Made by a program: the position numbers and the translations under genes | Notes under the pieces: generated by a model | Databases searched by the model: none | What the model was told of the DNA's origin: nothing | Seen by the model: only the letters and a program-made list of their open reading frames with translations | Shown: positions 30,611 to 63,185 of the stretch, piece after piece | How positions within the stretch are numbered: the first letter of the stretch is position 1 | Layout of the letters: every line of letters starts with the position of its first letter | From: Pagrus major | Lineage: Eukaryota > Chordata > Actinopteri > Spariformes > Sparidae | DNA: 64,000 nucleotides | Reading direction: 5' to 3' | Assembly (NCBI RefSeq): GCF_040436345.1 | Contig: NC_133223.1 | Coordinates: forward strand, 17,399,113-17,463,112

Positions 30611-30683
30611 GAAAACAATCAGAAACAAACAAACAAACAAAAAAAGATCAATAAAATGCAATAAAAAATACAAGTTTGAGCAC

Positions 30684-30689
30684 TTTATT
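30684..30689 (-). terminator. Candidate hoxd3a poly(A) signal
   Basis: AATAAA on the minus strand followed by GTGCTC and an A/T-rich stretch, about 960 nt after the hoxd3a stop. Other weaker matches lie between here and the stop, so the 3' end is only a candidate. Confidence 0.45.
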
Positions 30690-30998
30690 TACAAAATGTT
30701 AAACACAATAAAATATAACATTTCAATATCATTAGGGTTTCATAAATTTATGGATATCCAACTGAATGGAATAACAATGGAAGACGAAATAAAGAATAGC
30801 AATGGACTACACGAAATGACATGCTGGTGTGTATAATATTTCATACTTCGATAGTCTACGTTTTGTTTAAGGTTTGACACAAGATTAACCATGGACATAT
30901 AGTGGTGTTTATACACTATAAAATGCCCCATTTATCCCAGATTTACAATTAGAAATGCTCTTTATCAACAATACACTGCGAGTCATAGCATTTTCCAA

Positions 30999-31005
30999 AC
31001 CCTGT
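30999..31005 (-). promoter_or_regulatory. miR-10 7-mer target site in the hoxd3a 3' UTR
   Basis: The transcript reads ACAGGGU followed by U, a 7mer-m8 match to the miR-10 seed, about 640 nt after the hoxd3a stop and before the candidate poly(A) signal at 30684. Group-3 Hox genes are reported miR-10 targets in zebrafish (hoxb3a). Confidence 0.5.
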
Positions 31006-31566
31006 TTTGCCAACACTTTCCAAGTGCACTGATCTGTCCAATCTTACAAAAAACTCCACACTTATAAATACTCGCATAGAAACGATAAATAATGTGCAAT
31101 ACAAAAGTTATTAAATAATAAATATGCTATATGCTAGTACGAAAAGATTATGCCAAAAAAAATAAAAATAATACAAAATAAATAAATAGGAGGATGCCCG
31201 TGAGGAGAGTGAGATCCTGACAAACAGACGAGAAAATTTCCCCTAAAAGTCCTTCTTCTCTAAAGATGAGCTTCTACTTTTCGTGATCTACAAGACTTAC
31301 CTTCAAGTAACGGCATGAAATATTCAGTCAAAAAAAAAAAATTTGCGCATTGCACTTAAGAAAAACCCAAAAAAAGTAACACCAGGCTAGTCTGCCTCTG
31401 CGCATCCTCAAATATTCAAGAGAAATGGACAAAGCTGTATTATTTAGAAAATAATTACACAATAGCATTAATAGTAATATCAATAATACTGTAATAATAC
31501 ACACGACTCGCTTGGAGTGTAGTTATTAGACTAGTGAGGTAATAAAAAGAGCGCAACATAATTTTG

Positions 31567-31634
31567 GCACACATACACACACGCGCGCACGCACCCACAC
31601 GCACGCACGCACACACACACACACACACACACAC
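31567..31634 (+). repeat. (CA)n/(CG)n microsatellite in the hoxd3a 3' UTR
   Basis: CA-rich run with GC interruptions, beginning 13 nt after the hoxd3a stop codon on the transcribed strand, so it is part of the 3' UTR as a GU-rich run. Confidence 0.85.
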
Positions 31635-31646
31635 CGGAACCACATA

Positions 31647-33742: not shown

Positions 33743-34098
33743 TTAAAGGTGCACTCTGTAGTTTTGGGGAAGAAATTTAAAGCAGAAGAGAAAGATCTTC
33801 ACTGACTGATTTTAAAAAAAACTGAATAAACAAACTCTTTCTTTTCATGGCTGAATAAACTGCATAAACAAACTGATTTTAAAGGACAACACAGTTTCAT
33901 ACTGTTTCACTTTGTTTATATTTGGCGGACCCTGCCACCTTTCTATCTACAAACCATATTTTCCTCTGAGAACAGCTCGTTTATTCAGCTATGGAGAAAA
34001 TAAATATGTATGAGTTTGTATCATTACCTCATTAATATTGTAAATATTAAAATTCTGAGTTTGAATCTCTTCTCCAAAACTACATAGTGCCCCTTTAA
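33743..34098 (+). mobile_element. MITE family A, copy 2, upstream of hoxd3a
   Basis: Ends TTAAAGGTGCACTCTGTAG and CTACATAGTGCCCCTTTAA are inverted repeats about 30 bp long, with TTAA at both outer edges. It lies 740 bp upstream of the hoxd3a start codon, inside the predicted last 5' UTR intron. The internal core is shared with copies 1 and 3. Confidence 0.8.
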
Positions 34099-42305: not shown

Positions 42306-43441
42306 TTATAATGACGTGATATCAGTCTGGCTGTCCTTCTGAATGCTCTGCAGATGGCTGGAGGCTGGTGCAGATCTGCCCTTGGTGTTGGGCAGTTTGT
42401 GATCTTTCTTCCATTTCATCCGTCTGTTCTGAAACCAGATTTTGATCTGCCTCTCGGAGAGACAAAGAGTGTGGGCAATCTCAATCCGCCGCCGCCTGGT
42501 CAGATACCTGTTAAAATGAAACTCCTTCTCAAGCTCCAGAACCTGCTGCCGGGTGTAAGCTGTTCTGGACCGTTTGGGCTCGGATCCTGTGTAGTCCGGG
42601 TTCACTGGGAGAAAGAAAACAGAAGAGGAGGAAGGAAAAAAAAAGAAAGTCACCAAATGTGGCCAAAGCAGCATGCAGGCAAAAAACAATACAGCATGAG
42701 GAGTCTCTCTCTCTGCACCCGGGGCGCTCAAACTTTAAGGAAACGCACAAGGAAGAGAGGCGAGGAAATAATGAAGGATTTAAGCTGAATTTAAGCAGAT
42801 TTGCTGCAGATTTAAGCTCCATTACAAGCGGTCAATATGTGTTTTCAGGAGCTTTCAGGCGCTCACCTAGCGGCCTATTTCCTGAGCTATAAAAATTTAT
42901 GACTTGTGTAATTGGCGAGGCCTTTCAAAGACTCTCATAAATATTACACTGAATGATTCCTGAAGTACAGGTCTCAGCTGCTCCATAAGAGAAGTACTAG
43001 TAGCCTAGTAGTAGTAGTAGAAATCTTACCGGTAGTTACGTGGACTTTCTTCATCCAGGGGTAAACTACTGCAGGCTGCTTGGCTTGTATCCCATTTTGG
43101 CTCTTTGTGTTTTGTTGCTGTCCACAAGTCCGAGGTCCGGACACTTGGACCGGGGGCCCTGGCTCAGTCTGTGCGTTAAAAGGGCTCGACTGGCCGGATC
43201 TCTCTTGCACATGACCCCGTGGCTGCACTGTGCTGGAGTCCTGCACAGTGTTGCAGCTGAAGGGCTGCTCCGTGTAGTTTGACCGTGGGTAGATCCCTGC
43301 ATGGTGAAAGTCTGTGTCCTGCGTTGGACTGAAGTAGTCCGAGCCCTGCTCAGGTATATAGTTATTTTGTGAATATTCCTCGCACGGAGGAAATTTGGGA
43401 TCCACATACTTGGAGTTCACCATATACGAACTCATGGCCAT
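42306..43441 (-). CDS. hoxd4a: Homeobox protein Hox-D4a (two exons)
   Basis: Deformed-class homeodomain transcription factor that sets hindbrain (posterior rhombomere) and cervical identity. Exon 1 runs 43441-43030 (donor ACCG|GTAAG) and exon 2 runs 42604-42306 (acceptor CTCCCAG|TGAACC). The junction codon is valine, the intron is 425 bp and the product is 236 residues. The chosen start gives [20 protein letters not shown], a near-perfect Hox4 N-terminus; the reading frame stays open 20 codons further upstream. The YPWM Pbx-binding hexapeptide is at residues 127-130 ([11 protein letters not shown]). The homeodomain is about 147-206 with the Hox4 basic stretch [19 protein letters not shown]. 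The tail LPNTKGRS is typical of group 4, but the poly-serine tract of human HOXD4 is absent. mir-10b lies about 1 kb upstream on the same strand. A strong splice acceptor 6 nt before the ATG suggests that some transcripts start further upstream. Confidence 0.97.
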
Positions 43442-44414: not shown

Positions 44415-44500
44415 TTCATCGACCATATACTCCCCTAGAATCGAATCTGTGACTGTGGTTTCATCACACAAATTCGGTTCTACAGGGTATATATAGACGA
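44415..44500 (-). ncRNA. mir10b: microRNA mir-10b precursor hairpin
   Basis: Read on the minus strand, the 5' arm carries the miR-10 mature sequence. It occupies 44489-44468, begins TACCCTGTAGAACCG, and the A at position 12 gives the 10b form rather than 10a. The 3' arm carries a complementary star strand at 44450-44429, containing GATTCGATTCTAGGGG. The flanks pair further (CTATATA with TATATGG-type sequence) to close a stem of about 35 bp with a short loop. Vertebrate miR-10 genes sit just upstream of group-4 Hox genes, and miR-10b is the HoxD-linked form. Here the hairpin lies about 1 kb upstream of the hoxd4a start codon on the same strand, which supports the HoxD assignment. Likely targets within this window are hoxd10a and hoxd3a. 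Confidence 0.97.
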
Positions 44501-44847
44501 CGGCAAGCGACACCGGCCACTCTTTAGCAACACGACCGCAGGAGCTTTATTTGTGGCCAAGCAACATTCACAAAGTGGCTCAGAGTCAGGATAAACAGAA
44601 ACATCAGAGGAGCAAGGTTACATGAGGAAAGAAGAGGGCGAAAATGCGCTCTGGGGAAGTCTTATTACAGGCTGTAATAATGTCTTTTAACACATTTTGA
44701 TGGTTTCCTTTCTCTGACATAAGCATCTCCTTGAGTTTAGAGGCTTCTGTGATCTTTATGTTGTTGGTTTGAACCAAAGTTGGCCGCACAGTAGCTTTAA
44801 AAGTCATGTCAGTGGGCCACAGGCTCCATTTGCAATCCTCTGCAATT

Positions 44848-45172
44848 TTAAAGAGGCACTATGTAGTTTTAGAGAAGAGGTTCAAACTCAGAAGTGTAAT
44901 ATTTACAATATTAATAAGGCAGTAATACAAACTCAGAAATGTCTATCTTTTCCATAAGTGATTAAACAAGCTGTTCTCAGAGGAAAATAAGGTTTGAAGC
45001 TAGAAAGGTGGCAGGGTCCACCAAATATAAACAAAGTCAAACAGTATGAAACTGTGCTGTCATTTAAGATAAGTTCGTTAATACAGTAATGGAAATAAAA
45101 AGGGTTTGTTTGGCATAATAAAATCAGTCTACCAGTCTCTTTCCTCCCCAGAGCTACATGAGGCACCTTTAA
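44848..45172 (-). mobile_element. MITE family A, copy 3, next to mir-10b
   Basis: Inverted copy of the same element: the core GAAGCTAGAAAGGTGGCAGG is the complement of copies 1 and 2. Ends read TTAAAGAGGCACTATGTAG and CTACATGAGGCACCTTTAA. It lies about 350 bp upstream of the mir-10b hairpin. Confidence 0.75.
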
Positions 45173-47234
45173 GCAGAAAAATGAGAAGAAAAAGACAGAA
45201 ACTATCAGCCAGTGTCTCAGGTCAACCGAGGTTTCACTCCAGTAGGTCATCTTCCCTCCATCAAGTTCACAAGAGGAAGAAAAACACCTTCTTTAAATGA
45301 TCAAAACAACTTTCCACTGGTGTGAGCTGTCACCTCATAATCAAAGATAGCCTCACAGTAACGAAATAAACTCAGATAACTGATACTTGCTGCTAATTCA
45401 GAGGAGCTTATCACCACTGCCCCTCCTCGAGAGATGAGGCTGGAGGCCGCCGAGGTCAAACTAAATCATTTACAAACTTATCCAGAAGTTCAATTATTTT
45501 GGGGCCTGGTGACAGCTCAAAGGGTGCAAAAGTTTACCAATTCCCCGTCAGCCATTAACTAAAGCTCCATGACGGCCGCTGCAGCTCCCTCTGACACATC
45601 CTCACGAGTCACACCAAGCTGGGACGAGTTCAGATATTTTACAAAATAACCAGGACGAGTAGAATTATTTCTTTCAAGTACATGAAAGTAATATTATAAT
45701 AATGTAATTTCGTTCATATTGTATATCAGCCTCGGTGGGAGAGTTTACAGTCTGATATGTTACATATTCATGGCAGCTACATGGCGCTTTGACTCAGTCA
45801 CTGTCTAAATTAAATGATTTAATTGTAATGTCAGGTTTGAATTTAGGTCCTTTTGATTTGAGGCACTGGGTTTCCATCACTGTGGGAAAAGCTTTAATAA
45901 AGGTTGAGTCAGACGTGTTTTCTTCCTCTTCTAATAAGAAATAAAGGCACGTAGGAAGACCTTAACCAGCTGATTATATTCAGGATGACGCACCAAGTCG
46001 TTTAATTTAACGTGACGTTTTGGCCACAGTTATATTTGAGCGTGATTCATCTTGTCAAGTTGAAAGTTATAAATAAAAAATACAATAAATTGATAAATAA
46101 AACAGAAGGGATCGATATGAGCGCAGTCAGGACGCATGCGTGTCTTTTTTCTGCTTTACGCTCAAGTTTGAACAAAAACGTAAAATATTCGTTTCAACCA
46201 CAGTCAAAAAACAAATGAGAGAATCTGTAAAAACTCGGTCTTGATCTTCACATTTCAATATTTGTGAGACAGCCTGACCTGTCTTTCACCTTCCCCTGCC
46301 AGTCCTTCAGACGGGTCAAAGCCGAGAAACACAACAAAAGAATGATAAAGTCAGCGTTTCCTGGCAGCTTGTGTTCAACCAAAGGCCAACTAGTCCAGCT
46401 TCAGTCTTTTTTCACTACGATTCCTGGATTTTACCGTGAAAAAAGCTGCAAATTGAGAGTTTGAGAGCGACAGAAAACACGAGGCCTATTTAATCTAATT
46501 TGCGGGCGAAGTGAGGGAGCATTTCTGACTCATAGAAATGGAAAATAGGGCTTAAATTCCCCCTCTACTTTGAATTCAATATTATTTAACGATTATTAGA
46601 CGTGTTTTCCATCAGTGAGTGGTGGAATAAATCATTTAAAAGCCCTGCAGAAGAAATGCACCAGGCCTGCAGCGAGTAACAGCCACATAACGTGACAAAT
46701 AAAAATGAAATATTCTTGTAACCTCGGTGCTGTTTTTAGCTGTTTATTAATTTCGATGTAATTAAAGCTGAAGCTCAGATTGTCACAAAAACGAATTGTG
46801 AGCTAGGAAAATTGCAACAGAAGCAGAATTGGCACGTGTTTTATATATATACACATAATTAGGCCTTCCAGATATTTCAACAAATCCTTCAGAAAATCTC
46901 AAACAACAGCAGTCTGGGGGACAACAGGTTGATTTCTCCGCCTCCAAGCAAACAAGCACCACAAAGCTATGATCTATAACGACATCATGTAGCAGAGAAG
47001 CAGAGCAACAACTTGAACAACACACATCCAACAAAGCATCGATTGAGTCTTAAAAGGTTTAAACCCAAACCGAGCGCCGTAATGAGATTAAACACCATTT
47101 CCTTACAGCAGCGCATCATCTAAAGCATCTCTGTTCGTCCTGGACACGCACTGTGGCCGCTTTTAGAGGCAGGAAACAGTGTAGTGTGACATCACACGCC
47201 CATAGCACGAGCATAATGATAAAACGCAGCTTAC
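45173..47234. other. Intergenic, upstream of mir-10b
   Basis: No coding sequence recognised; mostly A/T-rich unique sequence. Transcripts from the candidate exons at 47.2 and 50.4 kb would cross it as intron. Confidence 0.4.
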
Positions 47235-47424
47235 CGCCGAGCCCGCAACACATGGCACAGCACCGAGGAGCAAGCCCGCCGCAGGGAGAGTCCGCCCGGT
47301 CCAGTCCGCTGCCAATTGACGCTCTATTCCAACCCATCTGGACCGTCTTACTAATACACAATGAGAATTATATTTTGGCTTGTCAAGTCCCGGGCCATAA
47401 AACAAACTTTAATGGCATCACGTG
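47235..47424 (-). other. Candidate distal first exon of hoxd4a/pri-mir-10b
   Basis: On the minus strand a GC-rich stretch ends in a strong donor (CTCGGCG|GTAAGC, exon end 47235). Upstream of it are an inverted CCAAT box (47312-47316) and an E-box CACGTG (47419-47424), and beyond those ATAAA-type caudal/Hox motifs (CCATAAA near 47395 and 47460). The arrangement resembles a promoter with a short non-coding exon. The nearest good acceptor on this strand is the hoxd4a one at 43447, with mir-10b inside the intron. Inference from splice and promoter motifs only. Confidence 0.35.
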
Positions 47425-48595
47425 TTTCCTCGCAGCCACTCACAACACCGCGCAGGCCCATAAATAACCCTCAAAGTTGCACTTACTCAATAACGCCGAT
47501 TACACTGATGTGCACTGAGGAAAAGTCGTGGAGAGGAAGAGAGGAAGCTGGGAGTTTATAGGAAGGTCGCAACTGTCAGGATGTTACTGGGAATAGAAGT
47601 GCACTTGGATAAAAAAGAAAGTATTTTATTTTGGTAGTCCATTTATTTGCACATTATACTTATATACAACTAATAAAATGCTTTAACTCAAAACAAAGTC
47701 TGCTACTTAGACAACTGTGTCTCTGACTGGTAACATTTATCATTTTATGACCTGTTGTCCATTTATTTAAGTCAAGGATTATTTTATTTTTTTATTCATT
47801 TTTTCGCCCCAGATCTGATTCTATCATCTCACTGAAGCCTGTTGACCTCTAACAGTGCGAACAAAAACACGCATGCATGATCTGTGCTCAAATACATTAT
47901 TTCTCTCCCCAGTGAACCTGACACAATAAGACTGATGTCATTCATTCATCCGGGCCAATCCCAGAGCGCACAGCACCGCTGCCCCTCCTCTCCTCTCCTC
48001 TCCTCTCCTACTGCACAGAGCTGATGTGATGATGTGGGGCAGGTATGATAAATGGAAGGGCATCAGATCAGAGGCTTGTCACTTTTTACATGCATGTACT
48101 CATAAAAAAGGAGATTTCCCCTGCAGGTAATTAGTGGCCTCCTCGGTGTTTTATAAGTAGCTGAACTCACATTGTTCCCGCTCTAATACGAGGCCTGTGC
48201 AGTTTTAAATGCAGTCATTTTGCTTTCAGCCTCAGCAGCATTCATAAAAACCACCTCCTCTGACATCAGCATGAGGAGGATGTCATGCAAACTCTCATGA
48301 ATCTGTGTGAAGATGTTCAAACAGCTGAAGTCAGTGAAGCTACAGCTTGTTTAGCATCTTTAACTGAAGTGGTCTCTGCTAATAAAGTCTCCTCTGATTA
48401 ATTAATGACAATAAACAGCTGTTTGCTTCTTGCTGTAGAACAACTAATGGGTTTGTGGAGCACGAGAACACTTAAAGATCCCACAAAACACCAAATGCGG
48501 CAATAAAAAGGCAAATAAATCACACACAAATGCTGAACTTGGTGATCTTTTTTACACACAGAGCTCCAAAAACCACTTTCAAAAGTGAACCACGT

Positions 48596-48620
48596 CACGT
48601 GACCACGTGTCTCAGCCAAT
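48596..48620 (-). promoter_or_regulatory. Orphan E-box pair plus CCAAT module
   Basis: TCACGTGACCACGTGT holds two overlapping-type E-boxes (48596-48601 and 48604-48609), followed by CCAAT at 48616-48620. The arrangement matches the proximal Hox promoters in this window, but no coding gene lies just downstream on the minus strand. It falls between mir-10b and hoxd9a, where tetrapods have hoxd8. It could be a distal hoxd4a/mir-10b promoter or a relic. Confidence 0.4.
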
Positions 48621-50405
48621 CACCGTGCTCAGGAAAAGCCTGCTGAACGTGTCCAGAGAGGCAGACTGTTGGGCAACAGCGCCTTCTGCTGGCACTTTAA
48701 CGACCTCTCCTCTGTTCCACTGCAAAAAATGTCCAACAACACTGACAAATACTTTCACTTTATCACGGGTTTGATGGAAATATGGAAGAAATGTGCAAGA
48801 CGGGAGAAGAAGCTGCAAATTCTGCATGCGAGTTAGTTCATTTCAATATTATTTGAATTAAATAGAGGTGTCTTAATTCAAGAGGGCTGATGAGTCTTGA
48901 TGAGACTGGGTTTAATTAAGCTCTAGATAGATAGATCAATAGCTTTATTAATTCCCGAAGGTAAATTAGGTTCATTTAAACCAATGAAACTGCACGTGAC
49001 TCAAGAGAAATCATCTCAGCCTTTCGCAAAATTATTTTCCTTGTGGTTTTTTTGTAATATGTTGAAAAAATAGAATTCAACAGAGTGTCGTGCAAATGTT
49101 TTGCAGTGTAGATGTTTTTATTGCTTGTGATTATGCCGATGAAGCGAAATAAACTCGTGTCTCGTGATGATTTTGATGTGAACACAGAAACTTGTCAATG
49201 AACGAGTCATTTCGTCTCACTGCAAAACGAAAAGAATGAAGAGGTAACACAAATAACAGCTTTTTAAAAACACCTTTTAGGTTTAATGTAAGCTAACAGG
49301 AAGAAATGTTTGTTTACTCTGTTTCACAATAATCCAAAAGAGTCTAATTTTGGACTACAACAAGTCTGCAGGGGGTTAAACGAGGGTGGAAAGGGGAAAC
49401 CACATCCATTCATGCAAACTATCTGTTCTAATGTGAGCAGGGCCTGCGGTCAGACATCGTTCTACATAATAAGAAGTTAGAAAAACACACAGATATCGTG
49501 TGGGATATCCACATTGTCAGATTACACAACAGTGTAAAGCCATGTCTAATTTGCTCAGGCTTCTTCTTGCGCCTCTCTCCTCTCTCAGGGTCCATTTTGC
49601 CGCATTGCAGTAAGGCTGTAAATACTTTCGCAGCTGCCTGTCAGGCCACAGTGAAATACTGTCTTTGTCTAGTTGGCCCCATCTCCAAGCAGCTGAACAC
49701 TGCTATGAAAACTCAACTTCTTCTGCCAGACTCGCATATGTGGAATAAAGCAAGGCAAACATTCTTCTGTGTGAAATTCTGTGCAGCATTTTAGCAAGTG
49801 AGCAAGTGTGGGGGGAAATACAGTGTCTTCATGAGACCAGTGCAGATATTCTGGAAGCTAAAGAAATGCTAAATGATAAAAAAAAAAAAAAAATGTGGGA
49901 TCACTGCCATCTTAGAAGCTAGAGGATAATAAAAGGTTTGTCGACGTGCAATAAGGAGCTTCAAATTGGAAACGAAAGGGGAACTCTGTGGTTCAATACA
50001 TGGAGCTCTCTTCTAAATAACTGCATCAGAAAAATACAGCTCAGACACCATCATCACAAACACAAGATACATTTCTGCAGAATAATCTAGAAATAAAAGG
50101 TGAGAGCCACGATGAAGAAACATGAAAACATGTCATAATAAAGTTGATTATTACTATAAAGAAAATATTTCTCTTTGATTCTTGCCACATAAAGGCACAT
50201 TTTCACTAATACCAACATCATTATTAGCCTTTTCTGCGTTTAAACTACAAAAGCTTTGTATTTCAACACATCCAGCAACGTGTGAAATTACCCGAAAGCC
50301 CTTACCCTGCTGCTAATTTACATGACTAATGAAACAGGAAGCTGTCAAACTTCACATGCAGACACACGCGCGTAAATAAAGTCCATTATGACACAGAAAG
50401 CTTAC

Positions 50406-50494
50406 CTATAGCCGGGAGGTAATCCATGTTCATTCTCTGAGGTTTACCTCTGCGGAACATTTTTGATAAAGCTGTGAAGAGCAAGATCTGCTTC

Positions 50495-50528
<34 letters not shown>

Positions 50529-50789
50529 TCTGCTACTTGCATGAAGATGTCAGATCTGTAGAAAAGTTGAAACGCTCCTCTTGTCATCCAGCAGAACGAG
50601 CATCTCAGTGCCGCAAATATGCGCCGATCGGACGTTTTATGAGACGAATGCGATTTTTAAGAAAGCCGACCGTGGCGCATCGGTTTGAACGCCATAGACT
50701 CAGAATGCAGTGGGAAAAAAATCGCCTGGGAAATCAGGAAAAGAGCCATGAAGACGTTTGCCTCTCACACATGACCAGTGGCATCCAAT
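50406..50789 (-). other. Candidate distal promoter and first exon upstream of mir-10b
   Basis: The plus strand reads CACATGACC (E-box 50768-50773) and then CCAAT (50785-50789), the same order and spacing class as the hoxd4a and hoxd10a proximal promoters. About 360 bp downstream on the minus strand is a strong donor GGCTATAG|GTAAGC (exon end 50406). A short open frame (MFRRGKPQRMNMDYLPAIG) runs up to the donor; it would not be in frame with hoxd4a after splicing to 43447. This may be the fish counterpart of the mammalian distal Hoxd4 promoter. Usage is unproven. Confidence 0.4.
50489..50530 (+). repeat. (CTG)n trinucleotide run in the candidate distal exon
   Basis: About eight consecutive CTG units plus CTTCTG variants, within the proposed distal hoxd4a/mir-10b first exon. 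On the transcribed strand it reads CAG. Confidence 0.85.
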
Positions 50790-51794
50790 GACAGGCGATG
50801 GAGGCACATAAAAAGGTCTATTACCAAGTTGTAAATTGTCCCCGCACAAAAAGGAATTTCGACTGCAGCAATTCTCCCCATCTTTGCTGCATAATGGCAG
50901 AAGCCCCTCCATGTCCTCTGGAGGAAAACAAGAGGGGCTTTCCCTCCTGTTTTTTTTTTCCTTCTTCTTTTTTTGTTTCTGTCACACAACTATGAAATGT
51001 TAAATCTTAGAGCCCTTAGATTTTAGCCTTGAAATGTTTCAGCTTCATCATAACGCACATTCTTTAGCAGAACAGAAAATAGAAGATTTTAAAATGTAAA
51101 ATGTGCCACTTTTCCTTGAACATATGGCAGAATCATGATGACGCAACGTTTTTGCTTCGCTCAGGATGAAAGTCGACATATTTTATTTAATAAAAAAATA
51201 AGAATTCATTAGATTTTTTTATCTGAGCGGTTTTTGCGTCGAATTGAAGCTTTTAGCGCGACGGAATTAATTACTTTCTTTTATTTTTGTTGCTTTTCAG
51301 GGAGCGGCCCTTACACCGACTGTTAACAAAATGTCACATGATACAACCAGCTATTTTATTCGGATTTATTACGACTAAAACTGGTGCGTAAAAATGTGCG
51401 TAAAATCATCAAAAATAGCCTAAAACTGAGACATTGGCCTTCTCCGAGTTGTTGCTCCACTATTGCTCGAGACGACAAAATATGTTTTTAAATCGATCTG
51501 TGTGTTTCCTGCTCCACATCATCGCTACAGGCCTGCTGTTATTCATACATATGAGGACGAAATGAGAGAGAAATAAATGATGATATATGAAAACGTTTCA
51601 CACTATTGACCCTCGAGATTTAAAGGCTAAATATTGCAGCTGCAGCTCTCCTCCGTGTGTACACTTCTGCAGCAGCATAAAAGGAATTTCTTTCATTTCA
51701 TTCTCGTTCATCTGGTCGCATGCCAGAGTCAGCACTGTGCGATTTATAGTCAGGCTATGGCTCGCTCTCTGGTTTCCTGTCTTATAGCTTTGTG

Positions 51795-51796
<2 letters not shown>

Positions 51797-51845
<49 letters not shown>
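51797..51845 (+). repeat. (TG)n microsatellite
   Basis: Uninterrupted TG run of about 48 bp in the hoxd4a-hoxd9a interval; no linked feature. Confidence 0.9.
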
Positions 51846-51846
<1 letters not shown>

Positions 51847-54214
51847 GCAAGAGATCAGGATTTGTTGCATTGCTGTGACATTGTTGTAAGTAACTCTAGT
51901 CCAGTTTCGTCCAGTGGGGAGAGGCCATTCTTCTGTTGGAGGGGTTAGAAAAAAATCTGGATTAACGTCGCTTTAGTCGCGGTGTAAAGAGATGAAGATA
52001 GAGGACTATTTGTCCGCGCATTTTTCTTACATGATGCTCTCGTCCGATGTTTGAGGTCACTGATGGTCAGAGAGCAGCCACGTTGCACTGGTCGGTTGGT
52101 GTTAGTTCCAGTATGTGATGTGGTGGAGGAGTAGTGCACAGTATGAGTGATGGAGAGGCAAAGACAAATCTATGAAGCTCACACTGGCCATTTCCTTTGA
52201 TTAGGGGTAACACATGGTGTCTGCTGCAAGTCTGCTGGTGCGAATCAAATATTTAAACTGTGCACTTTTAACAAACCTGACTCATAAATTAGTTGGATAG
52301 TTCTGATATCGGCATATTGGCCGATAAATGCATATAGGCTACACACACATGCACATTTTATTTTTTATTTTTTATTTATTTATTGCAGTGATCCTTCAAA
52401 TGGTTATCAAACACTTGTGATAAAGATATGTAATGGACGCAGAATATGTTATTGTCTAAAATGTCATCAGTGCACTAAAACAGTAAACTTACAGGGAATT
52501 TAATATTTAGAAATGACCCCAAGGAGCTTTTTTTGCTTATATTATAACCCCTTAAAAAAATATCAGAGGCCGATAAAGAAGTATCTGCGATAGGCCAGTA
52601 TTGCTCTATAATATCTGCAAATATCTCAATATATCTGTCAAGGGCTAATAAATAGTTAGCTAGATAGCTAAATAGCTAAATAGATAGATGTCCTTGGTTT
52701 GTAATAACAAAAGGAAACTAGATTTTGCCAGCATCAGCTTACAGTGTTTGAGTCCAGAATTCCTGACTGATATTGGGATAAAAAAAGACATAGGCCTATG
52801 AAAAAGACATGGCATTGGTGGGTGGGGTTGGTAGGTTACACACACAGCTGCAACATTGTTAGACACCTAGAAGACCAATAAAAAATGGTGGCAACAACCA
52901 GTACACCACGTCTCATCGTGAGTCTGGTGGGCTTTTCTGTCTGTCTTCCTGTTCTCTCCAACTACCTCGGTTTAAAAACAGGCCATAAAGCCAATTTGGC
53001 TTACTTTCAATCCCGGCGAAAGGAATAAAGCCACACATCCAAATTAACGGCTCAGCACAGTAAATTAGTTGCAGTTGTAGCCTGTGTGCGCGTGCGTTGC
53101 TTTGAGTTGTCTGCTGACATCTAAACGTGATTTAAAAAAATAAAAAAACATCATTATTTTTAGTGGAGAAAATTCAAATAAGCTTTAAATTTTGACTTTA
53201 AAACCTTAAGTCCAACAGGAAAGTAGGCCTATGCATTGTGGTAATGTGATATTATCAACTTAGGCTCAAATGATGTGGTTTACTTTGATCACAGAGCTCT
53301 GATTGTGGTTTCCGCACGGCCTGATTCGCCTGAAATTAGGCCTAACCCAAATACGCAGAGGCCGTTATATAGCCTGGCTGCGCAATAGAAGAAGGCCAGT
53401 TGGTGGATTTTATAATGATAATTATTATTATTGTTGTTCTTGTTTTGTTTTTACATCATGTTGGTTGCATTGACTATTTTGATTTTACTAGCCACATGAA
53501 TCAGAACTTGGAGCCATCATTTCAAAAGTCTGTTGCCATGGAAGTACCCAATGACTGATTCAAGTTTGCACGCGAACACGTGATTGTGATGATGTCATAA
53601 CACAACATCCAGTTAGTAAACACACACACACAAAAAAAAAACTATACGGACAAATCAATCAATAATCAAATCACAACAATAAAAGTTTCATGGCGGAGTG
53701 GTGCGTTCAGGAGTCTCACAAGCCTGAGGAATAAAGAGTGCCATAATGGCCAAGATCATGAACTGACTGATCAGTTATGATGATTTAATTATTACAAATC
53801 CGTTGTTATAGCAACCGCCCCAGATCCAGTGTGGACATCCACCTCATCATTTCACATGTGCACCATATTACTTTACAACTTTGTTGGAATGACGCCATTT
53901 CATTCTGGGCTGCTCAGTCTGTCTCTCTGTCTCGCGCATAGGAACACACTGTAGAACCTCCGGGGTTCTTCAGAACGCGAGACGTCACAGTTCACTCTGG
54001 ACTCCGGAATACCTGCTTGTCAAATTGCGTCATAGAGCTGAAGTATTTCACAGCTGCTGTGGTTTTGGTTGTGAACAAAAAAACGACAAGCAGGAAAACA
54101 CCGCGAGATTTTAAAATGTCACAATAAGGCGAGGTTGGTTTAACGTCAAGAGAGCCTATAGGCTGGACAACAAGGTTTACTGAAGTAAGGTTTCCAGTCA
54201 TAGGTTCAATTCAA

Positions 54215-54302
54215 CACACACACACACACACACAGAGTGAGAGAGAGAGAGACAGAGAGAGGGAGGGAGGGAGAGGGAGAGAGAGAGAGAGGGAGAGAGA
54301 GC
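54215..54302 (+). repeat. Compound (AC)n(AG)n microsatellite
   Basis: AC run followed by a long GA-rich run with GGGA interruptions, in the hoxd4a-hoxd9a interval. Confidence 0.9.
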
Positions 54303-56854
54303 AGCAATTCTCCTGAAACCAGCCCAAGTTTGTTCCCAAATCGTTGACGTAAACTGTTATGTTGGCGTGTAAATGGAGGTAATGTGACTGCAGCTAATGG
54401 CCAGAGTGAAATAGTTGACCCCATGGCCTCTAAAGAAAGAGGCACATGACTACCCATAACTGTAAATCGATTATGACTGCGTGGACATATTGACAGAAAT
54501 CCCCTCGTTATCAAAGAAAATGTTTCATCTGGTTATTGTGCGCGTGTAATCGACACATATGTCTTGCTGAACATTGTCACTATGAGGTCTGAAGTTATTC
54601 GGCCCTGATCGTCTCCGTCTCCTCTGCAGTCTACTGTCTTTATCACACATACACAGCTCGAGACATCAGGACGTCGCATCTCTTAAGATGCAAATAATCA
54701 ATCCAGCATTTTCTCTAATTGCTTCAATATTTTCGCATCCATCTTGTGCTCTCTGCGCGCCGCCATTGGCTGCCAGTGTTTGGATGCTTCACACAACTGC
54801 AAACCTCATGACAATCATAATTTTAATGGCGATGAGTGAAGTAATGTTCACACCAGCTCCTCAGGACACAGCGAGGGAGGCGCCTCTTACTCTTCCTCTG
54901 CAGACTGAATTAAGAAAAACACACTGCTGCACTGCTGCGTTCTCATCAGATGTGTCAAACTGGAGTCCTGCGGTGTTTAAAGCTCCGAGAATCTGCTTTC
55001 AACTGCAAGTTAACGACTGTGAGGGTTTATCAGATGCCTCAGGCCCTGAGCTGGATGGTCAGAGGGTTTTGGCATCAGATAATGGAAATTAGGGGCCTCT
55101 TTTAATTATTCTAATTCCTCTTATCGTACTTTTCAAATTGTAAATTGTTTCTGTGCTGTGTTGATTTATTTGTTTGTTTCACTGACCTGGCTTTTAAAGA
55201 GGGGAAAACATATAGCTATTTTCTTCCACAGGCCCAGTATAGCACTGCTGATGTAAGTCACTTAAACATAAACATTTGAATTTGAAGTATTTTTAGCATT
55301 GTGGGGGGAAAAAAACACACAAGGCATGTGTTGGGCATGTTTAGAAGCTCCAGAGCCAAAACAGAGCTTACGTATAAATATTAGTCTACCATCAAAGGAC
55401 ACAAGTACAGGGACAATAAAATACATTTAGAATTAATCGATTTAATAAAGTTTTGAAGAAAATTGATGGTGTTTTAAAGGGGAGATTTAGAGAAATACAT
55501 TTTCTAAAGTTGACTATAATTGTCTCTGTTGTTTCCATGTGTGCAGGATGATGAGGTGAGGCTGAGGACTTCTTTAACCCTTTACTGTGTCGATGAAAAG
55601 AGGCTGCTCTTCTGTGAAAATGTATATTTCTGAATTGTTGTTTGACGGATGTAAATTAGCACTATGCCCAATCCGGCATGTTTACATCGTGTGTTTAATA
55701 ACGTGCTCTGTCCCTATCCAATAAACAAATAAAATTAGTTACTATGTATTTTTTTTGATTGCTCAGATTTGGGGTTTTAACATTATTAATGGACCGTTTA
55801 TTTTATTTGAAAATAAAACATTTTTTTAAACTGCAATGGGCGATTAAAAAACATAAATTAGGACTTTTAATTGTTTAAATCAACGTGATATTCTTTTTTT
55901 TTCGCTCCCACAAAACAACAGCTGTCGACTCAGGACCTAAAATTGTACCATAATTGTTTACAATGCTGTAAAATCGACCCCCACACTTTTCACTCCTCAC
56001 ACTCTGGACTTTTGAGACGTTCACAATCCAAAAACCTCGACTATTATAAAGGACATTCAGAGATTCAGCCCACAGTATGTTTTCTACACTTTCTTCTCTG
56101 ATTTTCATACAACTCAGTGGATCCATGAGTGCATGCTGAATGGTTTGCTGCATGTGTTGCCTTCACGTTCCAGCTGTGAATGAACTGCAGTAACTGAGAC
56201 TAAAAGGACAATATCGCCCTCTAGCGCTCTCGTCACTTCCCCCCTGAAGCTCCAGCAGAGATAAAGTGATTGTATCTGTTTTGGCACGATTCAGGGTTTT
56301 CCCCATTTTGATCTGACTCGTGACTTTAAAATTGTTTCACTGATTTATAGGCAAAAGATCAATAAAAAAAAGATTGATGTCTGCTTCAGTAAAAACACTT
56401 AGTTTTCTCTGATTTTGCCTTCATGGGGTCAAAACCAGCACACACGGCCTGGTTTAACATTTCAAAATAAAATAAAAGCATCTGACTGTAAGGCTGCACC
56501 GGACACCAGTCAACGTGAAGTTTTTTTTTCCCATCAGTGGGAAGTGCAGTTGATGAATAAACCTGACCATTAAGGTTGGGGGGTGATTTCCTCTGAAACA
56601 ATTCATCGACCAGACACCCTGTGGAAAAGTGTCTACATTCTGTTTGTCAGCAACAGACGCGAACGCCCGAGAAAAAAGGGGGTTTCAAAGGAGAGTGTAA
56701 TTACTGGCCAGGGCCATAAAGTCATTTAGGCCAGACGTCTAGCCATTTCTATAGCTTTATTGGACCGCGTTTCTTCCTGCTTTAAAGTAATTATTCGTAC
56801 AAGTTGGACAATAAATTGGAAATCCGCCGCAACACCTCTCCCAATCGTAAACAC

Positions 56855-56860
56855 TTTATT
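56855..56860 (-). terminator. Candidate hoxd9a poly(A) signal
   Basis: AATAAA followed by GTGTTTACG on the minus strand, about 970 nt after the hoxd9a stop. An earlier AATAAA near 57.2 kb is an alternative. Confidence 0.35.
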
Positions 56861-57771
56861 ACTCGTTTCTTCTGCGTTTACAAAATCCAGCGTTGAAAAA
56901 GAGTTAAATCAACCAATAATGTAACTTCTACTTCTACTACTCTGATTTAAAGGGGACTTTAAATTCATATATTTTGTGCAGATGCATTTGTAGTCTGCAA
57001 TTAAGAAAATGTAGGCGTCAAACGCTCAAAAAAACAAACAAAAAAAACTGTTGTGTTACATTTTGTGTTGTATTTTTCTAGTAGTCGTCACGGTTAAAAA
57101 AAAACAAACAGGCCTCCAGGAGGATTTCCTGATTTTTAAAAAATTAAAAAACTTAAATAAAAAAGGCTAAAGTCGGCCGAAACATGCAGAGAAATGTGAT
57201 ATATTTATTAACGCTGACGTTAAGTGGATCATTTCCAATTCTCCAAGCAAAACGCAGAACTATTTTTCAGTCCATGTTTTTTTTTTTTTTTTTTTTTACC
57301 AATAAAGAAAATAGGGGTTGAACGCACGCTTTACTGACGCAGCATCTCCGTGTGTGTATACTGACAGAGACAGAAGTCAAAGTAGTTCAAGCTGTGAAAA
57401 TGTTTTATATACAACTCCACATTCTTAACAACTATAAAAGCAATACACATAGGCACGTTTACTGTGGGAGGGGGTGCTGGACTCATCTGAGAGGCTGCTT
57501 GAACACCCCAGTGTGTGTTTGTGAAATCAAACAGATCATTTCAGATGAACTGAAACTGTATTCTTTTTTTTTTAAAGAATCCGTGTCTGTATATCCGGAC
57601 AAACTCCTGCACGTTTTGATGCATATTCGGCCAAACACGTTCTGACACTGACACGCTAGAAAAAAATAATAATAATAATAATAATAATAAAACGGCTACC
57701 TTGGCTCCTACCAAAATAAATGTAAATAGTTCAGATGGCTTCCTTGGTACAAACATGAAACTGTGTGAGTC

Positions 57772-57773
<2 letters not shown>

Positions 57774-57818
<45 letters not shown>
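57774..57818 (+). repeat. (CAG)15 in the hoxd9a 3' UTR
   Basis: Fifteen uninterrupted CAG units on the plus strand, that is CUG repeats in the hoxd9a mRNA, starting about 10 nt after the stop codon. Confidence 0.93.
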
Positions 57819-57820
<2 letters not shown>

Positions 57821-57828
57821 GGGATGTT

Positions 57829-59109
57829 TCATAGGTGATCCTTTCCGCTCCTCTCTCTGTTCATCTTCTTCATTTTCATCCTCCTGTTCTGGAACCAGAT
57901 CTTCACTTGTCTCTCGGTTAAACTGAGTATGCGGGCCACCTCATAGCGCCGGTCTCTTGTCAAATACATGTTGTAGAGGAACTCCTTCTCCAGCTCCAAA
58001 GTCTGATATTTTGTGTACGGGCACCGCTTCTTTCTCGTCGAGCGGGCGTGAATCCAGTTTGCCGCAGGGTTGCCTGCAAAAAAAAACAACAACAAGGGGG
58101 AAAAGATATATAATAAGATACATGTGATGAGGGTGTTTTGGATTTGAAACTTTAATGGCTTCAGTAAATGGTTGCCAGATTGGGGCTCGGGGACCTGTGA
58201 GGACACTGGTGTGGTTACAGGGAATCAAAAGCACCAAAAAAAGGAGGAAATAGTTTAATTTGAAGGAGTGTTTAGGTGATATGTTTCCTTGTTTTTTACA
58301 CACACATCAAAATAAATCACATCAGGTAAAGTCTCATCGACTCTGAGCGTTGTGTATCTGTTTTGGGTGTCCTGTGACATGCAGAACTTCAGGATCCCCT
58401 GTAATAACCCGTGCAGGGCGGGTTTTTTCCCCTTCCCGAGCCGCGGTATAGTACGAGACACTTTTATAGGTTAGTAAAACCTCCAGTTTTACACACCCAG
58501 CTCATACAGTTCTTCAGGGTTGTAAATCAGCACCGGCTATTTCGTTTACTTACTTGGGTCAAGTTGTTGTTGTTTCTCCTCTTTGGGCTCGCTGTGGCTC
58601 GAAAGCTCACTTCCACTGAGATCCCTGTTCGCCTTTTCTGGACACTCCGACGCTCCGCACGCGAACTCACCGGCGAGCGGCCGAGCCTCTGCCTCCAAGG
58701 CGTCGCACTCCGCAGCTTTCGGTGGCAAGACCTCCGGCTTGGTCCCGTACGGCCGACCGCCGGAGTGAAATCCGGCGAACGAAACGTGGTTGGAGATGGG
58801 GTCCATCCAGGAGCGGACGCCGACATATCTGCCGTCCGAGGCGGGGAGATGGGACTGGTGGTGGTGGTGGTGGTGCACGTACGGATGATAAATCCCCTGC
58901 GGGTGAACCGAGGACCAAGACGACGAGAAAACGGCGGACTTTGGTGCAAAATTGCAAGAGGAGAAGTCTGCGTTGTCCGCCCCAGCACCTGCCGGCCTCG
59001 GGGTCACCATGTGTGGAGCCTGAATAAAGCGAGCACCGTACACATCCTCCGGCTCCTGCCCCATTATAGCGTCCACATAGCAGTTACTGAGAGTGCCACT
59101 GGAAGACAT
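57829..59109 (-). CDS. hoxd9a: Homeobox protein Hox-D9a (two exons)
   Basis: Abdominal-B class homeodomain transcription factor. Exon 1 runs 59109-58554 (donor CCCAA|GTAAGT) and exon 2 runs 58073-57829 (acceptor TTTGCAG|GCAACC). The split codon becomes serine, giving 266 residues and a 480 bp intron. I chose the ATG at 59109 ([13 protein letters not shown]), the family start, over an in-frame ATG seven codons upstream. Hox9 N-terminal blocks are visible: [21 protein letters not shown] and the RSWMDP motif. A six-histidine run follows HPYV. The Pbx-contact motif ANWIHARS carries W at about residue 192. The homeodomain spans about 198-257 and begins [20 protein letters not shown]. The protein is shorter than human HOXD9 because it lacks the alanine, glycine and serine-rich central expansions. 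Fifteen CTG units follow the stop codon in the 3' UTR. Confidence 0.97.
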
Positions 59110-59208
59110 TTTTGATCCCTTCCTACTCATATAATAAGGGTTGCACTGTTACGGGAAGCTTCCCTCTATGAACAATCATAGTATTTTTGCTGGCCTGCAT
59201 CTACAGGG

Positions 59209-59244
59209 ATTGGTTACATGGATCACGTGGTCATATTTACCAAT
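59209..59244 (-). promoter_or_regulatory. hoxd9a proximal CCAAT/E-box/CCAAT module
   Basis: ATTGG (59209-59213), CACGTG (59224-59229) inside the palindromic string GATCACGTGGTC, and CCAAT (59240-59244), about 100-135 bp upstream of the hoxd9a ATG. Two CCAAT boxes flank the E-box. Confidence 0.5.
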
Positions 59245-59279
59245 ACAGCGAGTAAATCAATCCTGCCCTGCTGCTCTCT

Positions 59280-59319
59280 CTTTTTTTTTTTTTTTTTTTT
59301 TTTTTTCTTTTTTTTTTTT
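59280..59319 (+). repeat. Poly(T) tract upstream of hoxd9a
   Basis: About 39 bp of T with one C, roughly 170 bp upstream of the hoxd9a start and just beyond its E-box/CCAAT module. Confidence 0.9.
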
Positions 59320-60846
59320 GGTCGTCAGGTTTAATTTAGCTTTTCATTTCACAAATAATAAAAAGCCCCATCAGATGTGACTGGGGGGAGAAAACATTCG
59401 CTCAAATTGGATTCAAATGTTTTTTTTTTGTTTTTCGTGCGGGTGGCTGCAGGACGCTGCAACAATACAAGCAACTTCAAAAAAAGAAAAAAAAAAAAGA
59501 AAAAAAGGAAAAGTCACACATAATCCAGACCAAAACGGATTCACTGCATCTTAATGTTTGAGAACAACTCTTATAATATCGTCCTGATACCCTCAATGCT
59601 AGTAAAATGGTTTATAGACTTACGGAGTCCTCGTAAAATAGATGTAATAACATGTTGTAAAATAACAGACGCCATTTCCGTTCACAATGCGGCGTACGGG
59701 CTTTATCCATTGTTAATATTCGGCGAGGAAACATATTTTCTGGGCTGGGTTTTAATTTTTAAAGCTAAGCCGGAAACGGCAGTTGTGAAATGATTGTGCT
59801 CATTCAAAGGAGGGCAATAATGTCTTTATGTATCAATAAATGTTTTATGAGGTGCGTGTGATTATACATGCCGTCAATAAAATAAAAAGAAAAGACTTGG
59901 AGGAGCAGGAGTCCATCTGTGTGCTGCCATCTGAAAGGTGCACTTTAAACCTAATATAGATGTTATATTTTTATTTTTTAAGAAGTGAACTTTAAGTTGT
60001 TTGTTTTTATAGTTTCTTGACCTTCAGTCCAGAATTAAAAGAAGAATTTCCAGGAAGATATTCTCAATATTTAGGTCGAACCTCCACACAGGATCACACT
60101 GACAGCTGCGCGTCATTTGTCGCATATAATCCCATCACATGAAGTTATTCTGGACTGTGAGGAGAGACGCGACGTGGCTGCTGAGGCCTCGGAAGGAAGG
60201 AAGAGCTGATTCTCGCCTGTGAATTTGTGCTTGGACGTATAATTCGGCCCCGTCCTGATAGTCCTGACAGAGTATTAGTTTAGACACAAACAAGAGCGTC
60301 TTTATTTGATGAAAGCGTCGCGCGTCTTTGCGCACGCACAGAAATAGACCTTTGGTAGACAGCAGAGGAGGCTGCGGCATTTTTTTTGGGTTTGCTTTGG
60401 ACTATTTTTAGCGCTTAATTTCACAAATGTAACTTAATTTTTCTTCAGCGAGCTGGATCATCTTTAATAACAGGTTAGGTGTTGTATGAAACCCGCGTAC
60501 GTCTAAACTGCGGCAGCCCGCAAACAAAATATTTTCACATTTTTAAGGCTCATCGCGTGATGACTTTAGAGCATAATTGTAGATCTAGTTAAATTAGAAA
60601 CACATGTCAGGATCCACTTTGGAGCACCGTTTCTTCTCTTGCAGCAAAGTGCGACAGGCGCTTTGAAAACATGTCTTTTTCTCGCGTTTTCCCTCCTGAT
60701 TTTACACATTTTAAGCAAAATATTTCCTGCGTCAGAGCGCCTGATACCGCAGATTTGATGAGACTGGTCTGGCACTGGCCCAGGTATTTGTAGACCACAG
60801 GCTTTGATAGCCACAAACAAATGCAAAAACAAAGATTATTTGACAA

Positions 60847-60852
60847 TTTATT
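60847..60852 (-). terminator. Candidate hoxd10a poly(A) signal
   Basis: AATAAA on the minus strand about 480 nt after the hoxd10a stop, beyond the miR-10 site. No stronger match was noticed between the stop and this point. Confidence 0.45.
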
Positions 60853-61121
60853 GCAAGATAACATGCCACAAACATGCAGTAAATTCACAGATTAACATCG
60901 TTTCTTGTCACTTTAAAGGCTCATACATTTCACTATTGAGCAAATGGCTTGCACTTACTGGAAAAAACAAAAACAAAACAAATGTTGCACTATTACACCA
61001 CAATAAAATGTGCTTTCATGACTGAAATAGAGTAACTTTTTTTTTTTTTTTTTTTTCCAAACAGCGAGACCCAACAGAGGATCAATGTCTACTGGCAATA
61101 ATTTAAGACCAAAAAGTGAGT

Positions 61122-61129
61122 TACCCTGT
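61122..61129 (-). promoter_or_regulatory. miR-10 8-mer target site in the hoxd10a 3' UTR
   Basis: The minus-strand transcript reads ACAGGGUA, a perfect match to miR-10 nucleotides 2-8 plus the A opposite position 1. It is about 200 nt after the hoxd10a stop codon and before the candidate poly(A) signal at 60847. HOXD10 is an established miR-10b target in mammals. Confidence 0.75.
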
Positions 61130-61329
61130 GATGAAACAAAACAAACAACACGACGTCACACAAAGTACTAAATTGGCATATACATATATTTATATTTATA
61201 TATATATATAGTCACAGTTTCGTTGAAATTGAAGATAAACGTCCAATGCCGCTGAAGCATCAAACTGAGTATGAGAGGAAGAAGAAGAAAAAATAATAAA
61301 AGACAGCTAAACCACAAATACATGCGAGC

Positions 61330-63185
61330 TCACGAAAAGGTGAGATTTGAGGTCAGTTCACGGATGCGGTTTTCTCTGCTCATTTTCTTCAGCTTCATCC
61401 TGCGGTTCTGAAACCAGATCTTGACCTGCCTGTCGGTCAGGTTGACGCTCCGGCTGATCTCTAGGCGGCGCTCTCGGGTCAGATACATATTGAACAGAAA
61501 CTCCTTCTCCAACTCCAAGGTCTGGTGCTTCGTGTAGGGGCATCTTTTCTTTCTGCCACTTTTTGCTGTTAACCAGTTGCTCGTTGGCGGGTCACTCTTG
61601 CAGCCTGTAACAGATGACACACACACACACACACACACACACAGTGTTTTAACGCTGCTGCTGCTGCTGCAAACTCCTCACCTGCTGATTTGGATTTCAC
61701 CTCTGGGAAATAACACACAATTATAAATGTTTTCCCAGAATAGATAAAATAAAAAAGCAGGGGATGTTATTAGTCACGTACATGCCAACACTAATGAAGT
61801 AGAAATGAAATTAAACCCCAGCTGATCAGACCGCACCCTACGATCTTTGTACAGCTGGAAACATTAGCAAAAAATAAATAAATAAATAAATAATAAAAAA
61901 TCTATTAATTTCATAAAAGCTTCAAATGAATTAGCAGGTGACAATTGATTAAATTGTTAAAATCGTCAGCTTTTAATTTAACTTGTAACTTCTGATTTAG
62001 TTAAAGATGCAAAACTATCCAGCACAATTATCCTGGAGATGTTGGAGTGATTACATTTTTGCAGTTGTACAACAAATATGGCTCTCATAAAAGCGCCTCG
62101 CGTTACACTTCTAGTGTCTGCAAACCGTGACATGTGCCCCAAAATATAACACAACACGTTGAGAAAATATTTTTTTTAAAAATTGCAGCTTATTTGACTT
62201 TAAATGTGTGAGGACAGAGCGACGCACAGTGTGCATGCTGCATGGTAAAACCATTCTCTGTTGCCTGTTACTGCAACCTGAGAAAGACTCTCATTAAACA
62301 TTACGACTTTAGGGTTGTTTGTGTTTTATACTTGGTTTTATGATGCTGGAGCCTTCTCAGCACCGCAGCGCCACGAGATAAAAGCTTTCATTGTGTAGCC
62401 AACCCACCTTTCCCTTCCTCGTGGAGCAGCTCAGGACTGGACACAGGCGCCTCCATGGGGCAGCTCTTCTCCCCGGAGCTGCTGCTGGACTTCGGGCTTT
62501 CCGCTGCGGGGACCGGCGTCCTTGAGGTGTCGGGTTTTTGCGGGACGTCCTCACTTTTCTTTTCCACCTCTGCGAAATTCGAAGACGCCGAAGAGGAAGA
62601 AGAGGAGGAGGAGGAGGGTTGCGGTTTCGGAGTGACCCGGCTGAGTTGCATCAGTGTTGGGTTTGGACTCGGCGGATCATGGCAGTAGTTTTCCTGATGT
62701 TTCCCGTTCGCGTAAGTTTGGCTCAGTCTGAAATAGCCCGGAACCGGGATCTCTGGACCGCCATCGACTGGACACGACTCGGGAATAACGTCAGAATATG
62801 CGGGGACGTCTGACGAGCTGACTTTTTGCACTCTCTTATCCGAGTACATGCAGCAGTTACTCTCTTCCTTTATGCTCTGTGAAAATGTACAGTTTGACAT
62901 CTGACTGGACGACTCTATCCTGCAGGGTCTGCTCGGATCAGTCCAGTTATCTATTTGAGGTATGTAAGAGTGGACATTCATGCCCATATTTTGGTGGTTG
63001 ACCTCCCCTCTTTTGCCGAAAGACGGCAGGAGTCCACAGGTTTGCATTCCGTAAGTTCCCATTTCAGAGCCGGCGGACGGCATGTACATGTTGCTGTTGG
63101 AGTAAAAGCTGTCCGTCCTGCACGCCCCAATTAAAGAGTCCACTAAAAATGTGTTGGCCGCAGGAGAGCTACTGGGGAAGGACAT
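61330..63185 (-). CDS. hoxd10a: Homeobox protein Hox-D10a (two exons)
   Basis: Nuclear homeodomain transcription factor of the Abdominal-B class that patterns the posterior trunk, spinal cord and paired appendages. Exon 1 runs 63185-62408 (donor AAAG|GTGGGT) and exon 2 runs 61604-61330 (acceptor TTACAG|GCTGC). They join in phase 1 to give 350 residues across an 803 bp intron. The N-terminus ([18 protein letters not shown]) and internal blocks such as [15 protein letters not shown] and [12 protein letters not shown] are Hox10 signatures recalled from vertebrate HOXD10. A Pbx-contact tryptophan lies at about residue 270 (SNWLTAKSG). The homeodomain spans about residues 276-335 with [11 protein letters not shown]-type helix 3 ([14 protein letters not shown]), and the tail ends [11 protein letters not shown] serine run encoded by TCC/TCT-type codons near residue 200 is a low-complexity insertion. 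The next gene downstream is hoxd9a, on the same strand. Identity as group 10 is certain; the D assignment rests on the protein blocks and cluster context. Confidence 0.97.
61617..61643 (+). repeat. (AC)n run in the hoxd10a intron
   Basis: Short AC run directly upstream of the hoxd10a exon 2 acceptor (GT-rich in the pre-mRNA). Similar to the dinucleotide run in the hoxd3a intron. Confidence 0.85.

What the first reader, a model, noticed from the sequence alone, without database searches (positions are those of the whole stretch)
44429..61129. mir-10b and its own cluster neighbours form a putative feedback circuit
The window holds the mir-10b hairpin, a perfect 8-mer seed match (ACAGGGUA) in the hoxd10a 3' UTR at 61122-61129, and a 7-mer match in the hoxd3a 3' UTR at 30999-31005. 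HOXD10 is an established mammalian miR-10b target; the hoxd3a site is an extension to the anterior neighbour. No such site was seen in the hoxd4a or proximal hoxd9a 3' UTR, though one match lies at 56616-56622 beyond the hoxd9a poly(A) candidate. One microRNA would thus act on genes both 5' and 3' of itself.
Basis: partly seen in the sequence, partly recalled or inferred. Interest (0 to 1): 0.72.

Follow-up and report, generated by a model that had tools for sequence, protein, structure and literature searches.

The report
miR-10b target sites in HoxDa cluster
A fish-type Hox gene cluster carries the microRNA gene mir-10b and, in the neighbouring gene hoxd10a, a good candidate binding site for it; this resembles microRNA-to-Hox repression already described in fish and mammals, while a second, weaker site near hoxd3a could easily be chance.

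Summary
The window looks like a teleost HoxDa cluster (species not identified), genes on the minus strand. mir-10b matches Rfam RF00104 at 44422-44496. hoxd10a has the 8-mer ACAGGGTA at 61122-61129, 200 nt past its stop and before an AATAAA. hoxd3a has a 7-mer-m8 at 30999-31005, about 640 nt past its stop. Window-wide the 7-mer is not enriched: 8 found, 6.54 expected. In the candidate hoxd10a UTR an 8-mer arises in 0.14% of shuffles; in that of hoxd3a a 7-mer arises in 4.5%, and 13 of 84 recalled miRNAs have one there. Human HOXD10 responds to miR-10b through a CAGGGTA site (PMC4258287). In zebrafish, miR-10 repression of hoxb1a and hoxb3a, with an autoregulatory transcript, is published; the same paper finds no seed in HoxD3a (PMC2148072). 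Conservation in fish could not be tested. 'Feedback' is unsupported: nothing seen has hoxd10a or hoxd3a acting on mir-10b. Most likely an ordinary, one-way repression of hoxd10a; the hoxd3a site is doubtful.

The parts
44422..44496 (-). mir-10b precursor hairpin (RF00104)
   Evidence: 73.1 bits, E 1.3e-16; folds at -30.3 kcal/mol
44467..44489 (-). mature miR-10b-5p
   Evidence: exact complement of the miR-10b morpholino printed in PMC2148072
61122..61129 (-). 8-mer miR-10 site ACAGGGTA in the candidate hoxd10a 3' UTR
60830..61329 (-). candidate hoxd10a 3' UTR (stop codon 61330-61332, AATAAA 60847-60852)
   Evidence: the 3' end is inferred from the poly(A) signal
61330..61605 (-). hoxd10a homeobox exon, coding part with stop (5' limit approximate)
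   Evidence: ORF; Pfam Homeodomain; nearest solved chain Hox-A9; the name hoxd10a rests on recalled HOXD10 protein sequence
62388..63185 (-). hoxd10a exon 1, coding part (3' limit approximate; ATG at 63183-63185)
   Evidence: ORF, ATG; assignment by recalled HOXD10 N-terminus; no Pfam match
30999..31005 (-). 7-mer-m8 miR-10 site in the candidate hoxd3a 3' UTR
   Evidence: near chance
30670..31646 (-). candidate hoxd3a 3' UTR (stop 31647-31649, AATAAA 30684-30689)
   Evidence: the 3' end is inferred
56616..56622 (-). 7-mer-m8 match beyond the candidate hoxd9a 3' UTR; probably intergenic
42306..43441 (-). hoxd4a coding region (two exons; ATG 43439-43441, stop 42306-42308); mir-10b lies about 1 kb 5' of it
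   Evidence: ORFs; start and stop codons; homeodomain; name by recall

Best explanation
This is a teleost-type HoxDa cluster in which miR-10b, made from a transcript upstream of or shared with hoxd4a, damps hoxd10a mRNA through one canonical 8-mer site in its 3' UTR. It would act in the trunk and spinal cord where the two overlap, a one-way post-transcriptional trimming of hoxd10a. The hoxd3a 7-mer is at most a weak extra site. Shown here: the hairpin, the seed match, its place between stop codon and poly(A) signal, and its rarity under shuffling. Inferred: transcription of the UTR, co-expression, repression, conservation.
For: Hairpin and mature sequence; 8-mer site before the first AATAAA; 0.14% of shuffles; miR-10 is the only one of 84 recalled miRNAs (82 distinct seeds) with an 8-mer in the candidate hoxd10a UTR, 10 of 84 having any 7-mer or better there; a human HOXD10 3' UTR reporter is repressed by miR-10b-enriched exosomes and not when its site is mutated (PMC4258287), and PMC5029620 reports reporter repression of HOXD10 by miR-10b; miR-10 represses Hox genes in zebrafish and the miR-10b probe stains most strongly caudal to the hindbrain (PMC2148072).
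Against: Over four UTRs and 84 miRNAs there are 11 8-mers in 336 cells, so one 8-mer alone is weak evidence. The site is predicted less accessible than usual: opening costs 7.1 against a median of 3.28 kcal/mol for 60 random stretches. Flanks do not match the human site: 2 of 8 upstream bases. No fish comparison was possible. miR-10b inhibition left HOXD10 unchanged in HTR8 cells (PMC5413012), and PMC5029620 saw little protein change on miR-10b knockdown. Vertebrate miR-10 is said to target Hox1-3 preferentially (PMC3394115), and PMC3290615 reports no major effect of three Drosophila Hox miRNAs on their Hox targets (title).
Confidence: 0.66

Rival explanations
1. Both sites are chance seed matches with no regulatory effect; the window holds about the number of ACAGGGT that its composition predicts.
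For: 8 found, 6.54 expected; 13 of 84 recalled miRNAs, miR-10 included, have a 7-mer or better in the candidate hoxd3a UTR; low predicted accessibility at hoxd10a.
Against: UTR shuffles (0.14% for the hoxd10a 8-mer; 0.48% for two 7-mer-m8 over four UTRs); only 2 of 420 same-composition 7-mers, this one included, reach two UTR hits; prior from human HOXD10.
Confidence: 0.25
2. miR-10b also represses hoxd3a, through a long primary transcript that holds mir-10b and the hoxd3a coding region, so that the miRNA limits its own precursor's mRNA, as published for zebrafish miR-10c and hoxb3a.
For: Zebrafish hoxb3a/miR-10c autoregulatory transcript (PMC2148072); a mouse Hoxd3 transcript from the Hoxd4 P2 promoter could encode miR-10b (PMC3185001); the hoxd3a site is predicted open, 1.7 against a median of 3.65 kcal/mol.
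Against: Only a 7-mer-m8, near chance; no seed 1-7 in zebrafish HoxD3a; no transcript evidence here.
Confidence: 0.1
3. A true feedback loop in which hoxd10a or hoxd3a protein regulates mir-10b, closing the circuit.
For: None found here; Hox cross-regulation is common (recalled).
Against: No call gives a return edge and none of the passages read reports one; no literature search was aimed at this question.
Confidence: 0.03

Closest known systems
miR-10 repression of hoxb1a and hoxb3a in zebrafish (Woltering and Durston 2008, PMC2148072)
   Same: Hox-cluster miR-10 acting on genes of a Hox cluster that holds it; sites in 3' UTRs; a shared primary transcript for one of them
   Different: HoxBa cluster (miR-10c) and anterior targets; several sites per gene, tested in embryos; here one 8-mer in a posterior gene, untested
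Mammalian miR-10b to HOXD10 (site as given in PMC4258287)
   Same: Same miRNA seed, orthologous gene (by recalled protein), 3' UTR site with CAGGGTA
   Different: The human site is preceded by G (7-mer-A1), the fish site by A (8-mer); upstream flanks differ at 6 of 8 bases
miR-196 and HoxA7/Hox-8 paralogues (described in PMC2148072)
   Same: Hox-embedded miRNA with targets near it in the clusters
   Different: Other miRNA and paralogues; miR-196 lies 5' of its targets (PMC3394115)

Membership tests
mir-10 microRNA family (RF00104) | Covariance-model match above the gathering score | tested here: met
   73.1 against 47.5 bits
mir-10 microRNA family (RF00104) | Position 5' of a Hox-4 paralogue on the same strand | tested here: met
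   hoxd4a coding 42306-43441 (-), mir-10b 44422-44496 (-); the name hoxd4a is by recalled protein sequence
Canonical miR-10 target (hoxd10a) | Seed match of 7 or 8 nt | tested here: met
   8-mer
Canonical miR-10 target (hoxd10a) | Site within the expressed 3' UTR | tested here: inconclusive
   between stop and first AATAAA; no transcript data
Canonical miR-10 target (hoxd10a) | Accessible site | tested here: inconclusive
   predicted opening cost above the median (7.1 against 3.28 kcal/mol); a folding prediction only
Canonical miR-10 target (hoxd10a) | Conservation of the site in related fish | not testable with these tools
   no fish sequence found; own-genome search not answered in 8 tries; the single human site printed in PMC4258287 shares CAGGGTA but not the flank
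Canonical miR-10 target (hoxd10a) | Repression that depends on the seed | not testable with these tools
   needs a reporter or mutant
Canonical miR-10 target (hoxd3a) | Seed match more frequent than chance | tested here: inconclusive
   4.5% of shuffles; 13 of 84 recalled miRNAs
Feedback circuit | Target gene acts back on the miRNA gene | not tested
   no evidence in the window or in the passages read; no search aimed at it
Autoregulatory pri-miRNA/Hox transcript | One transcript holding mir-10b and the target coding region | not testable with these tools
   reported for zebrafish hoxb3a, possible for mouse Hoxd3

The most novel reading that the evidence does not exclude
In this fish lineage one HoxDa microRNA trims both an anterior neighbour (hoxd3a, in cis through a shared primary transcript) and a posterior neighbour (hoxd10a), with the hoxd10a site a full 8-mer where the human one is a 7-mer-A1, so that miR-10b bounds the cluster's output on both sides rather than serving posterior prevalence alone.
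Probability: 0.08. Interest if true: 0.4.

Novelty: new member of a known kind. Interest (0 to 1): 0.18.

Why it matters
If conserved, the hoxd10a site would carry to fish an interaction that the papers opened here test in human cells, and would bear on why a Hox-4-linked microRNA targets a gene posterior to itself. It would not change the current picture of Hox-embedded microRNAs.

Tried and rejected
Window-wide enrichment of the seed: rejected. miR-10b-3p sites in the four UTRs: no GAATCTG in any; one AATCTGT in hoxd10a, not pursued. Pairing energy as a discriminator: -14.9 (hoxd10a), -14.7 (hoxd3a) and -13.9 (beyond hoxd9a) kcal/mol, so it does not separate the proposed sites from the intergenic one. 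Special structure of the hoxd10a UTR: none, z-score 0.03. Homology of flanks with the human HOXD10 site: not seen, 2 of 8 bases. A duplicated element behind the 7-mers at 30999 and 24377: they share a 14-mer, but wider similarity does not stand out (46 of 1987 random pairs score as high). Other fish sequence: mature miR-10 pattern in viral contigs and genome contigs, 0 hits each; hoxd10a homeodomain in viral contigs, 10 pattern matches, none confirmed. Papers: nine searches answered (one search listed 20 of 44); no title or abstract start listed names a test of a fish hoxd10 miR-10 site; 13 papers were opened, by passages (one also by the first of seven parts), the rest seen as listings. Yekta 2008 and Ma 2007 are recalled and were not read.
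Full report
What was claimed and what is there. The window holds, all on the minus strand, hoxd3a (stop at 31647-31649), hoxd4a (stop at 42306-42308), mir-10b (44422-44496), hoxd9a (stop at 57829-57831) and hoxd10a (stop at 61330-61332). Paralogue names beyond 'homeodomain', and the call 'teleost HoxDa', rest on recalled protein sequences and gene order; DUF4074 at the end of the hoxd3a product is recalled as a Hox-3 feature. The species was not identified. The mature miRNA is the exact complement of the miR-10b morpholino printed in PMC2148072.

Is it more than chance? For the window as a whole, no: 8 matches to ACAGGGT against 6.54 expected, 31 of 100 shuffles reaching 8, and one of the 8 is the miRNA gene itself. 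For the UTRs the answer differs by gene. I took candidate 3' UTRs from the stop to about 15-20 nt past an AATAAA (the first for hoxd3a, hoxd4a and hoxd10a, though hoxd4a has an earlier ATTAAA; the third for hoxd9a), 3237 nt in all. In 5000 dinucleotide shuffles an 8-mer fell in hoxd10a in 0.14%, in any of the four UTRs in 1.9%; a 7-mer of either kind fell in hoxd3a in 4.5%; two or more 7-mer-m8 over the four UTRs occurred in 0.48%. Of 420 7-mers of the same composition, 2, this one included, have two UTR hits; of the 420 with an A added, 5 have one hit. Of 84 miRNAs whose 5' ends I recalled (82 distinct seeds), 10, miR-10 included, have a 7-mer or better in hoxd10a but only miR-10 has an 8-mer; 13, miR-10 included, have a 7-mer or better in hoxd3a, six of them (not miR-10) an 8-mer; 3 of 84 (miR-10, miR-26, miR-135) have a 7-mer-m8 in at least two of the four UTRs. 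So the hoxd10a site stands out moderately and the hoxd3a site does not.

Site quality. Duplex energies are -14.9 (hoxd10a), -14.7 (hoxd3a) and -13.9 (the match beyond hoxd9a) kcal/mol, and so do not discriminate. Opening the site costs 7.1 kcal/mol in hoxd10a (median of 60 random stretches 3.28), 1.7 in hoxd3a (median 3.65) and 7.6 beyond hoxd9a. The first is a mark against the hoxd10a site; the UTR as a whole folds like its shuffles (z 0.03).

Known biology. In zebrafish miR-10 represses hoxb1a and hoxb3a, and a hoxb3a transcript that contains miR-10c is autoregulated (PMC2148072; part 1 of 7 and passages read). That paper states that no seed is associated with zebrafish HoxD3a; its seed is nucleotides 1-7, and the site here lacks the A at position 1 and would not have counted. 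The term hoxd10 does not occur in that paper. Human HOXD10 is repressed by miR-10b through a site whose sequence, TCGTAATGCAGGGTA, is printed in PMC4258287 (passages). That is a 7-mer-A1, whereas the fish site is an 8-mer; 2 of the 8 upstream bases agree, so homology of the site itself is not shown. PMC5029620 (passages) used HOXD10 as a miR-10b control in reporters, but saw little protein change on knockdown of the miRNAs; PMC5413012 (passages) saw no HOXD10 change on miR-10b inhibition in HTR8 cells. PMC3541083 (passages) lists HOXD10 and anterior HOXA/B genes among targets of miR-10 and miR-196; PMC3394115 (passages) stresses preferential targeting of Hox1-3 by vertebrate miR-10 and notes predicted targets on both sides for Drosophila miR-10. 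[quoted passage not shown] no miR-10/Hox-10 pair is named in the passages shown. [quoted passage not shown] PMC3290615 (passages), PMC9525239, PMC5567286, PMC2080641 and PMC12144657, all by passages, gave no evidence on a fish hoxd10 site.

Mechanism. The simplest reading is one-way repression of hoxd10a by miR-10b through an 8-mer in its 3' UTR. The only loop with a precedent would be the hoxd3a one, if hoxd3a mRNA came from the primary transcript that yields miR-10b; no transcript evidence is available here. A feedback circuit needs hoxd10a or hoxd3a to act on mir-10b, for which nothing was found; I did not search the literature for it specifically.

What could not be done.

Verdict. Observation confirmed; interpretation partly supported; an ordinary member of a known kind. 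On rechecking, confidence in the best explanation was lowered from 0.68 to 0.66 (and chance raised from 0.24 to 0.25) because the knockdown result in PMC5029620 and the preferential Hox1-3 targeting had been left out of the evidence against.

Noticed in passing
window 29012-29252, 33859-34098, 44844-45087: Three copies, 80-87% identical over alignments of 219-253 columns, of a dispersed element (the third inverted), one about 350 bp from mir-10b; each carries a miR-10 6-mer (CAGGGT). [quoted passage not shown] Family not identified.
   Followed up: partly
window 57773-57819: A perfect 15.7-copy CTG run (sense strand) starting about 10 nt after the hoxd9a stop, in the candidate 3' UTR.
   Followed up: no
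window 31568-31634: A GT-rich microsatellite-like tract (sense strand) in the candidate hoxd3a 3' UTR, starting about 12 nt after the stop.
   Followed up: no
window 24377-24383 and 30999-31005: Two 7-mer-m8 sites share the 14-mer AACAGGGTTTGGAA, the longest match among the 15 pairs of six sense-strand sites; 46 of 1987 random pairs of stretches score as high, so probably coincidence.
   Followed up: yes
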